Source: Methylococcaceae bacterium (GTDB lineage: Bacteria; Pseudomonadota; Gammaproteobacteria; Methylococcales; Methylomonadaceae). Taken from it: DNA of 14,299 nt. The notes under the pieces were generated by a model. The model worked only from the letters and a program-made list of their open reading frames with translations. It was not told the DNA's origin and made no database searches. Made by a program: the position numbers and the translations under genes. Shown in pieces: positions 1 to 3,475 of the stretch. Each line of letters starts with the position of its first letter. Within the stretch, counting starts at the first letter, position 1. Where the stretch lies: contig JABFST010000020.1 in the NCBI GenBank assembly GCA_013140465.1, positions 1-14,299 of the forward strand, given 5' to 3'.

Positions 1-64
1 AATTTCTCCTGAACCTGCTTTGCTTAATATGCATAACAGACAAATCTTTTATTATTTTAATCAT
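1..64 (-). CDS. Possible third gene of the defence-like operon, 5' end only
   Basis: On the minus strand an ATG at 64-62 opens a frame with no stop to the window edge (21 codons, beginning MIKIIKDLSV). It lies 34 nt after the stop of the ATPase gene, on the same strand, and is equally AT-rich. The other two minus-strand frames close here: the ATG at 82 is followed by a stop after three codons. A GAGG sequence lies about 12 nt upstream of the start, rather far for a ribosome binding site. No family can be recognised from 21 residues. ATPases of this type often have a downstream nuclease partner in the same operon, so the gene is worth following, but that is inference. The open frame may also be chance. 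Confidence 0.3.
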   Translation of the reverse strand, partial: MIKIIKDLSVMHIKQSRFRRN

Positions 65-98
65 GACTCGTTAATTCCTCATCCAAAATTTTTTGAAT

Positions 99-1844
99 TT
101 AATTATCTATGTCAATATCAGAAATAAATTCTTTACCTGCTGTTTTTTGCTTATCTAATTCCTGTTTTAGCTTTTTAAAAACTTTATAAATAAGAAAATC
201 TTCACTAGTATCAGAATAATCATCTTTTGGATTTAACCTTGAGTTTTCTAAGCCAAATAGCGGCGATGTTACTAAAGTGTTAATCATTAAATGATTTAAA
301 TCTTTTCTAAAGTAGGGATCACTTACTCTTGTTTTTCCATCATCAGAATTTCTGTAAACTCTATAGATTATTGCATTATCTGACGCTCCTTGAATAATGG
401 TTGGGCTATGTGTTGTAAACATAAATTGCACATTGGGGAATAACGATCTTAATTTACTTACTAACACTCTTTCCCATTTAGGATGTAAGTGCAAATCAAT
501 TTCATCAACTAAAACAATTCCATGTAAGTCCTTTATATTTTCAATTTCTGGTTGACTCATCTGGAGGCGACTAAGCAAGTCAACAACAAATATTATAATG
601 CTTTTGTAGCCTTCCGAAAGCTGGTCAAATGTAAGTTGAGTCCCTTTCTCAGTAAAAACTACGTCTTTTCCATGTATGTTTATATTCACATTTCTTTCAA
701 GAAGGTCGTAAAACAATCTTTCTAAGTTTTTTATAGAGAAAAAACTAGATGATTCAGTTAAGCTATTGTCTATTGAATCTCTATTTTTCTCTAACTCCAA
801 AAGTCTCTTATCTTTTAACCAGGAAATGGGGTTTGTTAATGTTTGATCACTATCGAAAAGAGACATAAAGCCATATTTTTCAGCATTATCTGTTGAGTAT
901 CTACCTCGATGCGTCCCATATGCAAAAAAATCACTCAAAAAACCAGTGTTTTTACTATCATAGGTTTTATTTTTACTATCAATACCTATTAACTCTATGT
1001 TATTATTTTTATCAATAATATCAATAGCCTTTCCTGTTTCTTCTTTGTCTGTTGAATTAAGAATATAATACCTATTGAAAGCCAGATAAATAGCCATAAG
1101 AATCAATGATTTTCCATCTCCATTCTCACCTAAAAAATAGACTTCTTTTGCATGTTTTATATGATTAATATTGACTTCTTCTATTGAGAAAAAATTTTTT
1201 ATTTTAACACTATCAATATAACTATTTTCATGTTTTTTTATGCCTTCTAACCATGATTTAAACTCAGTTTCAGTAAGGCTTAACGCTTTATGAAAATTGT
1301 TGATATAACAAATATCATAAAAATCAGATTCTAACAGTCTAACTTTTGTTAGCCTTGAAATACGTTCTTCTAAAACTTGCTTAAATAATTTTCCTACTTC
1401 GAAATTCTGAAAAATTGGTGAAAAATCATAAGGGACACTTTTCATTCGCCTATATGTTGGGGTAGCTGCTCCCGATTCGATTAATGCACTTCTAACATTG
1501 GTATATTGCTTTCCATTCTCAAGTTCAAATATACCTTTCATATTTCCTTTCGAATATTGATTGGCAAATTTTTGAACTATTTCTCCATGTGTGAAAATCA
1601 CTGCAAATAAAGCAAATAATTGTTTTTCATTTGGATAGTTTTGAATTTCAAGCCAATAGTTAGGCAATGGTTCCTCTAATGACTTAATTCCGAGAAAAGA
1701 TTTAAGAATTGGTTCATCAATACCGGCCTCTTTATTTATAAATTTATAAAGAGTTTCTTTATCATAAATTACTTCCATAACCTGAACTACGTCATATTTA
1801 GTCCAAGATGTTCGAACTTTTGTAAAATCTATTTCGCTAGTCAT
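99..1844 (-). CDS. AAA/ABC-type ATPase (AAA_15/AAA_21-like), putative defence ATPase
   Basis: This 581-residue protein has all the motifs of an ABC/SMC-like P-loop ATPase. Walker A is GENGDGKS at residues 239-246. An LSEG signature-like motif is at 409-412. Walker B is GIVLVDEID at 442-450, with D447 and E448. A histidine switch sits in TTHSP at 477-481. The segment SVKIKNFFSIEEV before Walker A is the usual first strands of the RecF/OLD-like fold, and FFAYGTHRGR (306-315) and SPLFGLENS (527-535) are typical of stand-alone AAA_21 proteins. There is no membrane segment. No TOPRIM nuclease domain is evident after the ATPase core, so it is not a full OLD/GajA protein. Residues 1 to about 205 form an N-terminal domain I cannot assign. 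The gene starts 2 nt after the methyltransferase stop, so translation is probably coupled. Such ATPases act as sensors or motors in antiphage systems such as Septu, PARIS and some retrons. The precise role here is inferred. Confidence 0.88.
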   Translation of the reverse strand: MTSEIDFTKVRTSWTKYDVVQVMEVIYDKETLYKFINKEAGIDEPILKSFLGIKSLEEPLPNYWLEIQNYPNEKQLFALFAVIFTHGEIVQKFANQYSKGNMKGIFELENGKQYTNVRSALIESGAATPTYRRMKSVPYDFSPIFQNFEVGKLFKQVLEERISRLTKVRLLESDFYDICYINNFHKALSLTETEFKSWLEGIKKHENSYIDSVKIKNFFSIEEVNINHIKHAKEVYFLGENGDGKSLILMAIYLAFNRYYILNSTDKEETGKAIDIIDKNNNIELIGIDSKNKTYDSKNTGFLSDFFAYGTHRGRYSTDNAEKYGFMSLFDSDQTLTNPISWLKDKRLLELEKNRDSIDNSLTESSSFFSIKNLERLFYDLLERNVNINIHGKDVVFTEKGTQLTFDQLSEGYKSIIIFVVDLLSRLQMSQPEIENIKDLHGIVLVDEIDLHLHPKWERVLVSKLRSLFPNVQFMFTTHSPTIIQGASDNAIIYRVYRNSDDGKTRVSDPYFRKDLNHLMINTLVTSPLFGLENSRLNPKDDYSDTSEDFLIYKVFKKLKQELDKQKTAGKEFISDIDIDN

Positions 1845-1846
1845 TA

Positions 1847-3067
1847 TTATATTGGCTTTCCAACAATCAAATATTCTTTTACTTTTCTAGACTTGTCTTT
1901 AACCCGTCCCATTGTGCTGTGAGTATAATCAGTATATTTTGTAAACACATCATATTTATTTCCCAATGAGTTCTGTGCTATATTTAATATATCTTCAACA
2001 CTTATCATACCAGTATCGCTATAGCTCAAGATGATTTTTGCACTTTTATGTTTAACCCTGATGAACATTTCTCTGAAAGCATTTCGTACCTCTGTTCTTT
2101 TGCAAAAAGGGGATTGATGACGATCACTTCTATAGCGACCTTTGAACAAAACTTCGGGGTAATCATACTTAACCAGAGTTTCTAGAGCATGATAAAACCT
2201 AGAATAATGCACAAAGGCATAAGGTGGATCTGCATATACTAATACTCCAGTGGGAAGATTATCTAAGCATTCACGATAGTCTAATGAAGTTACTATATGT
2301 TTAAAGTCATTTTTACCTAATGATTCTATTAGCTCCGTAAGCTTACTTTTAAAATAAGGTAGTATTTCTTTCTTACGATAAATAATTATATCATTCATTG
2401 AATCTGTATTATTAGCGTCTCTATACTGGGCATAATGTCCTGTGCTTTGCGCATTATATGCCATTGCAAACATCAAGCTTGAAAGTATAGGGTAGTAAAC
2501 AGGAGTCTTAGAATACTCCTCAGCGGCGACCCTTAATGCATCAATCCAAAGGCACTGCTCAAATGACCAATAAGTTCCTGAGTAGTTTTTGATAAAAAGA
2601 TGATGTCCAACATCTTTAAAATCAAGATAAATTAACTTCTGCTGTTGTTGTTCGATAGTATTAAATTCATTTAAACTTTGTTCAAATTCGTAAGGAAATT
2701 GCAAGTTTGGATAGTGTTGGTGAACTCTATCTACATGCTGTTGAGCTACAGTAATAAGATCTTCTATTAATCCTTCAAATTTTTTCCAATTGTAATTACC
2801 AAGGTAGGTTTTTGCTAAGATAGCAGAGTATTCCTGAATATCATTTGAGTACATACTAACATTTTGACCAAGAGCACCACTTAGAATGCTAGTACCTGCA
2901 AATAAATCACATATGGCTTCCCCTTCATATATTTCATTTATGGTATAAACTATGTCTCTTACAAGCTCTCTTTTTGATCCCATGTACTTTATTATGTGAG
3001 GGATATTTAATTTATAATCTAACTTTTTTCTTGTAGGTACTTTGTACTCGTTAAGAATGGTGTTCAT
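1847..3067 (-). CDS. D12-class (Dam-like) adenine-N6 DNA methyltransferase
   Basis: This 406-residue protein would transfer a methyl group from S-adenosylmethionine to adenine N6 in DNA. The motif order is that of alpha-class MTases. Motif X is KYMGSKREL at 27-35. Motif I, the AdoMet-binding loop, is DLFAGTS at 54-60. An ND pair follows at 75-76. The catalytic motif IV is ADPPY at 279-283, and an LSYSD strand lies at 347-351. The roughly 190 residues between motif I and motif IV would hold the target-recognition domain and include a short glutamine run (139-143). It is longer than E. coli Dam (278 aa), as restriction-linked MTases often are. The ATG start has no clear Shine-Dalgarno sequence. 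It is the first gene of the operon, immediately before the ATPase. Low G+C suggests horizontal acquisition. No restriction endonuclease is visible within the window. The recognition sequence cannot be read from the protein. Confidence 0.92.
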   Translation of the reverse strand: MNTILNEYKVPTRKKLDYKLNIPHIIKYMGSKRELVRDIVYTINEIYEGEAICDLFAGTSILSGALGQNVSMYSNDIQEYSAILAKTYLGNYNWKKFEGLIEDLITVAQQHVDRVHQHYPNLQFPYEFEQSLNEFNTIEQQQQKLIYLDFKDVGHHLFIKNYSGTYWSFEQCLWIDALRVAAEEYSKTPVYYPILSSLMFAMAYNAQSTGHYAQYRDANNTDSMNDIIIYRKKEILPYFKSKLTELIESLGKNDFKHIVTSLDYRECLDNLPTGVLVYADPPYAFVHYSRFYHALETLVKYDYPEVLFKGRYRSDRHQSPFCKRTEVRNAFREMFIRVKHKSAKIILSYSDTGMISVEDILNIAQNSLGNKYDVFTKYTDYTHSTMGRVKDKSRKVKEYLIVGKPI

Positions 3068-3203: not shown

Positions 3204-3256
3204 GTGTGTTTAAAAGTAACCCGTAAGGGCGTACCACTGTATGGTGTATCGCGCTT
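3204..3256. repeat. Left-flanking part of repeat copy A
   Basis: GTGTGTTTAAAAGT at 3204-3217 recurs as GTGCGTTTAAAAGT at 10244-10257 (13 of 14 identical). In both places exactly 39 nt separate it from the GAGACTGTG end of the repeat element. The 39-nt segment itself is not conserved. Here it contains CCCGTAAGGG (3220-3229) and the small hairpin ACCA-CTGTA-TGGT. The equal spacing suggests that the repeated unit extends further left than its inverted-repeat end. Apart from the inverted repeat at 3104-3128, I see nothing gene-like between 3068 and 3203. Confidence 0.5.
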
Positions 3257-3376
3257 GAGACTGTGAAAGTATTGCCAATAATCACTAAAAACAGCGGAAA
3301 ATACGCCGTAAGTCATTAATTCTTAGCCGTCGAAAAATCAATTTTTTGCCTAAGTTTGGAATACTTTCACAGCCTC
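3257..3376. repeat. Repeat element copy A with 17-bp terminal inverted repeats
   Basis: The left end GAGACTGTGAAAGTATT (3257-3273) is matched by the inverted right end AATACTTTCACAGCCTC (3360-3376), with 16 of 17 positions identical. The first 19 bases are identical to copy B at 10297-10315, and similarity continues for about 15 more bases. The 120-bp length, the terminal repeats and the lack of coding capacity fit a MITE-like, non-autonomous element. I see no target-site duplication, and no transposase in the window carries matching ends. It lies between the AT-rich methyltransferase operon and fabI. Confidence 0.65.
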
Positions 3377-3412
3377 GTTAGCAATCCACCAAAGCGAAGC
3401 CTAGATCCCGCA

Positions 3413-3475
3413 TTGGGCATAGCGGTTTGCTACCGCGACCCGATAGGGCACGAAGTGAAACCGCCCTACGCCCAA
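3413..3475. terminator. Long imperfect hairpin after fabI, possibly a dispersed repeat
   Basis: The arm TTGGGCATAGCGGTTT (3413-3428) pairs with AAACCGCCCTACGCCCAA (3458-3475), allowing a 2-nt bulge and one mismatch. A smaller CCC-GATA-GGG hairpin (3439-3448) sits in the loop. The structure begins 4 nt beyond the fabI stop codon, so it would be the 3' end of the fabI transcript and could terminate it or protect it. No T-tract follows on the minus strand, so it is not a classical intrinsic terminator. The sequence resembles a dispersed extragenic palindrome, but only one full copy is present here. Confidence 0.45.

What the first reader, a model, noticed from the sequence alone, without database searches (positions are those of the whole stretch)
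1..3067. Methyltransferase-ATPase operon as a candidate undescribed antiphage or modification system
A D12 adenine methyltransferase (DPPY motif) is followed 2 nt later by a complete ABC/AAA ATPase (Walker A, LSEG, Walker B, H-switch), in AT-rich DNA unlike its surroundings. A further frame opens at the left edge. The methyltransferase and ATPase pair lacks any reverse transcriptase, HNH, helicase or TOPRIM domain inside the window, so it does not match Septu, retron, Gabija or PARIS as visible. A plausible model is that methylation marks self DNA and the ATPase drives an effector encoded at or beyond the left edge.
Basis: partly seen in the sequence, partly recalled or inferred. Interest (0 to 1): 0.7.

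Follow-up and report, generated by a model that had tools for sequence, protein, structure and literature searches.

The report
Septu antiphage operon with DNA methyltransferase
The cluster joins a DNA-methylating enzyme to the two-part Septu antiphage machine through an extra protein domain of unknown kind, which suggests a bacterium that marks its own DNA so that unmarked virus DNA sets off Septu.

The parts
1847..3067 (-). D12-class adenine-N6 DNA methyltransferase (first gene of the operon)
   Evidence: Pfam PF02086 E 1.1e-19; PADLOC MTase_II E 1.9e-32; DPPY invariant and FAGT invariant or nearly so in the 22-row alignment
99..1844 (-). PtuA-type ABC ATPase with extra N-terminal domain (second gene); stops about a dozen residues before the family's usual end
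   Evidence: PADLOC PtuA E 2.8e-46; PDB sequence and fold matches to Septu and retron I-A PtuA; Walker A, LSEG, Walker B and H-switch residues invariant or nearly so in the 26-row alignment; one TAA inside the family alignment
1230..1844 (-). N-terminal domain (PtuA residues 1-205), proposed reader of DNA modification state
   Evidence: AF2 model pLDDT 87.5; homologous domain on McrB-like and DndB-like proteins; no match in the libraries tried
99..1229 (-). ABC ATPase core of PtuA (residues 206-581)
1..64 (-). first 21 codons of ptuB (HNH nuclease gene), cut by the contig end
   Evidence: ORF open at its 3' end; N-terminal profile score 17.3 bits, 0 of 100000 random in each of two controls; gene order in relatives

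Best explanation
The operon is MTase - ptuA - ptuB, a Septu-type system carrying its own DNA adenine methyltransferase. Shown here: gene identities, gene order, conservation of the catalytic motifs, and that the N-terminal domain (NTD) of this PtuA is found with one MTase family on three kinds of partner protein. Inferred: the MTase methylates a specific adenine-containing site in the host genome; the NTD is the specificity module that tells that site unmethylated (foreign DNA) from methylated (self), in the way that the N-terminal part of LlaJI.R1 does for an McrB-like restriction enzyme; recognition of unmarked DNA, through PtuA ATP binding or hydrolysis, releases or directs PtuB. Least certain: whether PtuB then cuts the foreign DNA (restriction) or host tRNA or other nucleic acid (abortive infection).
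For: PtuA identity; PtuB in relatives and its start in the window. Among 52 loci found with patterns from the ABC core only, 19 carry the NTD; 18 of these have the MTase directly upstream (17 by the script's distance rule; L017 by reading, its mechanical ORF start lying too far upstream), 17 of the 18 within 5 nt or overlapping (L011: 382 nt; in L006 the MTase is split into two ORFs), and 18 of 19 have PtuB (not L011). Of 33 loci without a detected NTD (two of them cut at the 5' end of PtuA) none has a hit to the MTase profile; 28 of the 33 show at least 1.3 kb upstream. In an NTD-HMM scan of 4473 ORFs from the loci then held, the hits other than PtuA were two DndB-like (L113, L114) and two McrB-like proteins (L116, L057), each directly after an MTase of the family; profile-profile probability of the McrB-type NTD 99.8%, E 2.8e-29. 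The MTase also sits beside BglII-family endonucleases in 5 loci, all confirmed by Pfam (L055, L056, L095, L097, L112; E 1.4e-43 to 8.7e-38), and on the MTase tree BglII and McrB-like contexts share a starred clade. MTase, NTD, ABC and PtuB distances correlate over 15 loci (Mantel r 0.69-0.84; 0 of 5000 permutations as high). In McrB-like enzymes the N-terminal part is the DNA reader, and R1.LlaJI binds DNA with its site, which the system attacks when unmethylated (passages, PMC1459862; PMC12707154).
Against: No DNA binding, methylation or defence was measured. The NTD has no recognisable DNA-binding fold and its net charge is mixed (-4.3 to +10.9 in 18 sequences; window -0.2). One NTD-bearing PtuA, L021 (the most divergent NTD), has PtuB but no hit to the MTase profile in its locus. 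The counted loci are related (L008/L009 nearly identical), so the link within PtuA may be one inherited event; on the MTase tree the PtuAB-associated MTases are not shown to be one clade (3 changes, starred branches force 1). PtuA-PtuB of one Septu and of retron-Eco7 is reported to cut tRNA-Tyr (PMC13096335, PMC11555353), so 'restriction' in the strict sense may be wrong. The window's PtuA is slightly shortened, so this copy may be defective.
Confidence: 0.6

Rival explanations
1. Guard model (retron-like or PrrC-like): PtuA-PtuB is held inactive by the MTase protein, its methyl marks or its complex with the NTD. A phage that inhibits or removes methylation, or breaks the complex, releases PtuA-PtuB, which cleaves tRNA or other nucleic acid and aborts infection.
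For: In retron I-A the gene upstream of ptuA is a reverse transcriptase, and RT plus msDNA restrains PtuAB (passages, PMC8565338; PMC11555353); here the MTase takes that place. PrrC, embedded in a type IC R-M locus, is such a guard (passage, PMC12707154). One related PtuA-PtuB pair sits between HsdS and HsdM genes of a type I R-M operon (L019).
Against: The same NTD-MTase pairing occurs with McrB-like and DndB-like partners, and MTases of the family pair with plain BglII-type endonucleases, which fits a site-reading role better than a PtuAB-specific inhibitor.
Confidence: 0.25
2. Ordinary Septu with a neighbouring, independently acting methyltransferase, the two merely travelling together on an island.
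For: The MTase family also occurs without PtuA; the PADLOC survey reports another MTase-containing operon, Hma (helicase, m5C MTase, ATPase), often near Septu type I as a separate candidate system (passage, PMC8565338).
Against: Tight same-strand order at 18 of 19 NTD-bearing loci against no such MTase at 33 PtuA loci without a detected NTD; the NTD is found after the MTase on other ATPases and on DndB-like proteins; correlated divergence.
Confidence: 0.1
3. Assembly artefact: the AT-rich 3 kb is a foreign piece wrongly joined to this genome at a dispersed repeat.
For: GC changes sharply near 3.1-3.3 kb; window 3241-3471 resembles a repeat with at least 48 other places in the same genome; none of 60 relatives has a match that reaches the NTD, and the nearest named homologues are Bacteroidota; it lies at a contig end.
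Against: The repeat places are 74-93% alike, not identical, which makes a wrong join less likely; rare horizontally acquired defence islands look like this. It would change whose operon it is, not what it is.
Confidence: 0.05

Closest known systems
Septu (PtuA-PtuB; PADLOC Septu type I)
   Same: ABC ATPase PtuA followed by HNH nuclease PtuB; catalytic motifs conserved
   Different: Adds an upstream D12 MTase and a 205-residue NTD that matches no PADLOC model
Retron type I-A / Septu type II (RT-PtuA-PtuB, e.g. Retron-Eco7)
   Same: A third gene upstream of ptuA-ptuB; retron PtuA and PtuB are the best PDB matches by sequence
   Different: The upstream gene is a DNA methyltransferase, not a reverse transcriptase; the NTD has no meaningful PDB sequence match although retron PtuAs are in that set
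LlaJI-type R-M (MTases + McrB-like R1 with N-terminal site reader + R2 nuclease)
   Same: MTase followed by a protein whose N-terminal domain is the proposed site reader; a homologous NTD occurs on McrB-like proteins, in L057 beside a DUF2357/PD-(D/E)XK protein
   Different: Here the ATPase is ABC type and the nuclease HNH; LlaJI's reader is described as a B3 domain (passage, PMC12707154), and no such match was found for the NTD
Type II R-M with BglII-family endonuclease
   Same: Same MTase family (47-48% identical in the two plasmid cases; Pfam BglII in 5 loci)
   Different: A small endonuclease instead of NTD-PtuA plus PtuB
ptuXYZ (PtuA-like ATPase with DUF262 protein and PIN-YoeB toxin; PMC11980606)
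   Same: Another operon built round a PtuA-like ATPase
   Different: The three genes named there include no MTase and no HNH gene (passages seen)
Hma (helicase, m5C MTase, ATPase; PMC8565338)
   Same: A candidate defence operon with an MTase often found near Septu type I
   Different: Separate operon with a cytosine MTase and helicase; here an adenine MTase lies in the ptuA-ptuB operon itself (passage seen)

Membership tests
Septu in the broad sense (PtuA + PtuB) | PtuA-type ABC ATPase | tested here: met
Septu in the broad sense (PtuA + PtuB) | Adjacent HNH nuclease PtuB | tested here: inconclusive
   Only 21 codons in the window, N-terminus fits; present in 18 of 19 NTD-bearing relatives; rest of the gene not found elsewhere in the genome
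Septu in the broad sense (PtuA + PtuB) | Antiphage activity | not testable with these tools
   needs a phage assay
Septu type I as a plain two-gene system | ptuA and ptuB alone, no further operon gene | tested here: not met
   MTase upstream in 18 of 19 NTD-bearing loci; so it is not filed as type I but as a variant
Retron type I-A (Septu type II) | Reverse transcriptase gene upstream of ptuA | tested here: not met
   The upstream gene is a PF02086 MTase
Type II R-M | DNA methyltransferase | tested here: met
   PF02086 and PADLOC MTase_II
Type II R-M | Cognate nuclease cutting the same unmethylated site | not testable with these tools
   inferred only
LlaJI / McrBC-type R-M | McrB-like AAA+ NTPase and McrC-like nuclease | tested here: not met
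   ABC ATPase; the third gene in relatives is HNH
PARIS | TOPRIM partner AriB | tested here: not met
   the partner is HNH in relatives; AriA ranks below PtuA by fold

The most novel reading that the evidence does not exclude
The NTD is a portable, previously unrecognised modification-reading domain that, with one MTase family, forms a 'mark-and-read' cassette mated to interchangeable effectors: the Septu PtuA-PtuB nuclease, an McrBC-like nuclease, and a DndB-like protein with an unknown third gene. In the Septu form, absence of the methyl mark on phage DNA triggers PtuA-PtuB, possibly to cut host tRNA, making a methylation-gated abortive infection system.
Probability: 0.4. Interest if true: 0.8.

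Novelty: new variant of a known kind. Interest (0 to 1): 0.62.

Why it matters
What sets off Septu is not settled in the passages seen here. A Septu variant tied to a methyltransferase and a dedicated extra domain offers a concrete, testable trigger (unmethylated DNA), links Septu to restriction-modification, and suggests how defence effectors may be exchanged behind one recognition cassette. The NTD and the unnamed third genes of the DndB-like versions are leads for defence-system annotation: the libraries tried label only the PtuA, PtuB and MTase parts.

Tried and rejected

Paper searches for an MTase-bearing Septu. No listing or passage seen describes one; subscription papers and preprints are mostly not held, and I read passages, not whole papers. 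Target site: BglII and BstYI cut GATC-containing hexamers (recalled), a hint at a similar site; not tested, and weak, since their best known MTases are N4-cytosine enzymes (recalled). PADLOC gave no match for the L095 endonuclease; Pfam did.

Rows dropped before counts: L006 (MTase in two ORFs) left out of the MTase tree and the Mantel test; L011 (no PtuB, shortened PtuA), L018 (partial PtuB) and the window left out of the Mantel test; duplicates of L054 (L096, L119) and L016 (L110, L115) not counted; P0269 left out of the McrB-type NTD profile. In one search one MTase contig length of 119 was left out by mistake (not a shared one).

Full report
WHAT IS THERE. The window is a whole 14.3-kb contig (C138) of a 3.6-Mb, 507-contig genome assembly. 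On the minus strand, reading leftward from 3067, are a 406-residue D12-class adenine methyltransferase (MTase; Pfam PF02086, E 1.1e-19), two bases of gap, a 581-residue ABC ATPase, and from base 64 a frame cut off by the contig end. GC is 33% and 30% in the two genes and 52-54% in the rest of the contig.

THE THIRD GENE IS ptuB. In relatives, the gene after ptuA encodes an HNH protein of 254-293 residues (for L003: Pfam HNH E 9.5e-7, PADLOC PtuB E 3.8e-40; best solved relatives retron PtuB, E 7.7e-11). The window's truncated frame starts MIKIIKDLS; residues 2-9 score 17.3 bits against a profile of 16 relatives (range 14.0-19.4), reached by 0 of 100000 random peptides in each of two controls. 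The remaining 12 residues before the contig end do not add support. The remainder of the gene was not found elsewhere in the genome.

CONSERVATION. A scan of the genome collection (84,980 species) and of viral contigs with patterns from the ABC core gave 51 and 1 loci. Of these 52, 19 carry the N-terminal domain (NTD). The MTase lies directly upstream in 18 of 19: 17 by the script's distance rule, plus L017 by reading, where a mechanical start codon lay too far upstream; 17 of the 18 are within 5 nt or overlap, L011 has a 382-nt gap, and L006 has its MTase in two ORFs. PtuB lies directly downstream in 18 of 19 (missing in L011). The exception for the MTase is L021, whose NTD is the most divergent. 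Of 33 loci without a detected NTD (two of them cut at the 5' end of PtuA), none has a hit to the MTase profile (28 have at least 1.3 kb upstream), while 25 of 27 with at least 900 bases downstream have PtuB. One of the 33, L037, does have a D12 MTase of another kind just after ptuB, and L019 has its PtuA-PtuB between type I R-M genes. In the protein database, 40 contig lengths are shared between the two lists of best homologues (119 and 118 lengths compared), which also points to linkage. MTase, NTD, ABC and PtuB distances correlate over 15 loci (Mantel r 0.69-0.84; 0 of 5000 permutations as high). These loci are related to one another, so this is evidence of joint inheritance, not of many independent events.

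THE NTD IS THE INTERESTING PART. It matches no Pfam family above its cut-off, no PADLOC or NCBIfam family and no PDB sequence below E 0.26, and its confident model (pLDDT 87.5) has no clear structural match. Searching the MTase family rather than PtuA, in genome samples, plasmids and viral contigs, brought up other partners. Two loci (L113, L114) have MTase, then NTD fused to a DndB-like domain (Pfam 32.6 and 41.4 bits, cut-off 29.1), then an unnamed 441/451-residue gene. Two (L116, L057) have MTase, then NTD fused to a P-loop part that I call McrB-like: in L116 it is Pfam AAA_5 with PADLOC restriction-enzyme matches (E 6.7e-43) and a third gene without matches; in L057 Pfam gives only a sub-threshold NTPase match, but the next gene is DUF2357 plus PD-(D/E)XK. 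The NTD homology is solid: 258.6, 206.0, 86.4 and 72.8 bits for L113, L114, L116 and L057, profile-profile probability 99.8%. A search with the L116 NTD found 53 proteins, five of them named '5-methylcytosine-specific restriction protein B' by a source. Other MTases of the family sit beside BglII-family endonucleases in five loci (L055, L056, L095, L097, L112; Pfam E 1.4e-43 to 8.7e-38). On the MTase tree, BglII and McrB-like contexts share a starred clade, one pair (L095, L057) being direct sisters (100/98), so partners have been exchanged; the PtuAB-associated MTases need 3 changes and are neither shown nor excluded as one clade.

HOW IT PROBABLY WORKS. In McrBC-type enzymes the N-terminal part of the ATPase subunit is the DNA reader, and R1.LlaJI binds the site that its own MTases protect (passages in PMC1459862, and PMC12707154). 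I infer: MTase marks self; NTD detects the unmarked site; PtuA relays this by its ATPase; PtuB cuts. What PtuB cuts is open: passages report nicked DNA for one Septu, single-stranded DNA for retron Ec83, and tRNA-Tyr for another Septu and for retron-Eco7 (PMC11555353; PMC12948488; PMC13096335). Rivals: a guard model in which loss of the mark or of the MTase releases PtuA-PtuB (as RT-msDNA does in retrons, or PrrC in a type I R-M locus), about 0.25; unlinked neighbours, about 0.1; a misassembled contig, about 0.05. Against my reading stand the lack of any DNA-binding fold match, the mixed charge of the NTD, the L021 exception, and the absence of any experiment.

THIS COPY. The window's PtuA stops about a dozen residues before the family end, and ptuB is cut by the contig end, so whether this copy works cannot be told. 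Of 60 relatives of the genome, 10 have PtuA-like matches, but none reaches the NTD (they begin at model position 314 or later), and none of 397 other genomes in the phylum sample has the MTase at E <= 1e-30. The nearest named homologues are Bacteroidota: it looks like a rare, horizontally acquired island.

NOVELTY. The PADLOC survey reports the reverse-transcriptase variant as Septu type II, and Hma, a separate operon with an m5C methyltransferase, as frequent near Septu type I (passages in PMC8565338). Seven paper searches showed no MTase-bearing ptuA-ptuB operon in the listings or passages seen. I file it as a new variant of a known kind. Confidence: operon identity about 0.95; mark-and-read mechanism about 0.6.

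Noticed in passing
L019 5254-10380: A PtuA-PtuB pair without the NTD sits between a type I specificity gene (Methylase_S) and HsdM: another link between Septu and DNA modification.
   Followed up: partly
L037 4610-5521: A D12 MTase of another kind (Pfam PF02086, no hit to this MTase profile) lies just after ptuB of a PtuA without the NTD.
   Followed up: partly
L113 4157-5482(-), L114 11620-12975(+): Unnamed 441/451-residue third genes after MTase and NTD-DndB-like genes; no Pfam, PADLOC or NCBIfam match. Possible new effector.
   Followed up: partly
L008 12713-14236, L009 12710-14233, L017 12705-14234: A 507-509-residue protein with a GHKL-type HATPase domain follows ptuB in three loci.
   Followed up: partly
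L021 9180-16503: The one NTD-bearing PtuA without the MTase lies between a repeat-rich stretch that looks like a CRISPR array and a 1272-residue ORF without Pfam match (Cas13-like by appearance, recalled).
   Followed up: no
L026, L025, L030, L031, L036, L038: Other PtuA relatives carry other N-terminal parts (TIR in L026 by Pfam; TPR-like and HNH-like in the others by eye), so PtuA may be a hub for exchangeable sensor domains.
   Followed up: partly
own genome C172 (L002) and C131 (L079, L117): Two more Septu-like ATPase plus HNH loci in the same genome.
   Followed up: partly
window 3241-3471: Spacer beside the island resembles a dispersed repeat with inverted ends; at least 48 further matching places in the genome (40 of 121 candidates were scored).
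   Followed up: partly
L018 7978-10167: PtuA of 729 residues, longer than its relatives, not explained.
   Followed up: no
L112 7083-9633: MTase followed by two BglII-family endonuclease ORFs, one on each strand.
   Followed up: partly
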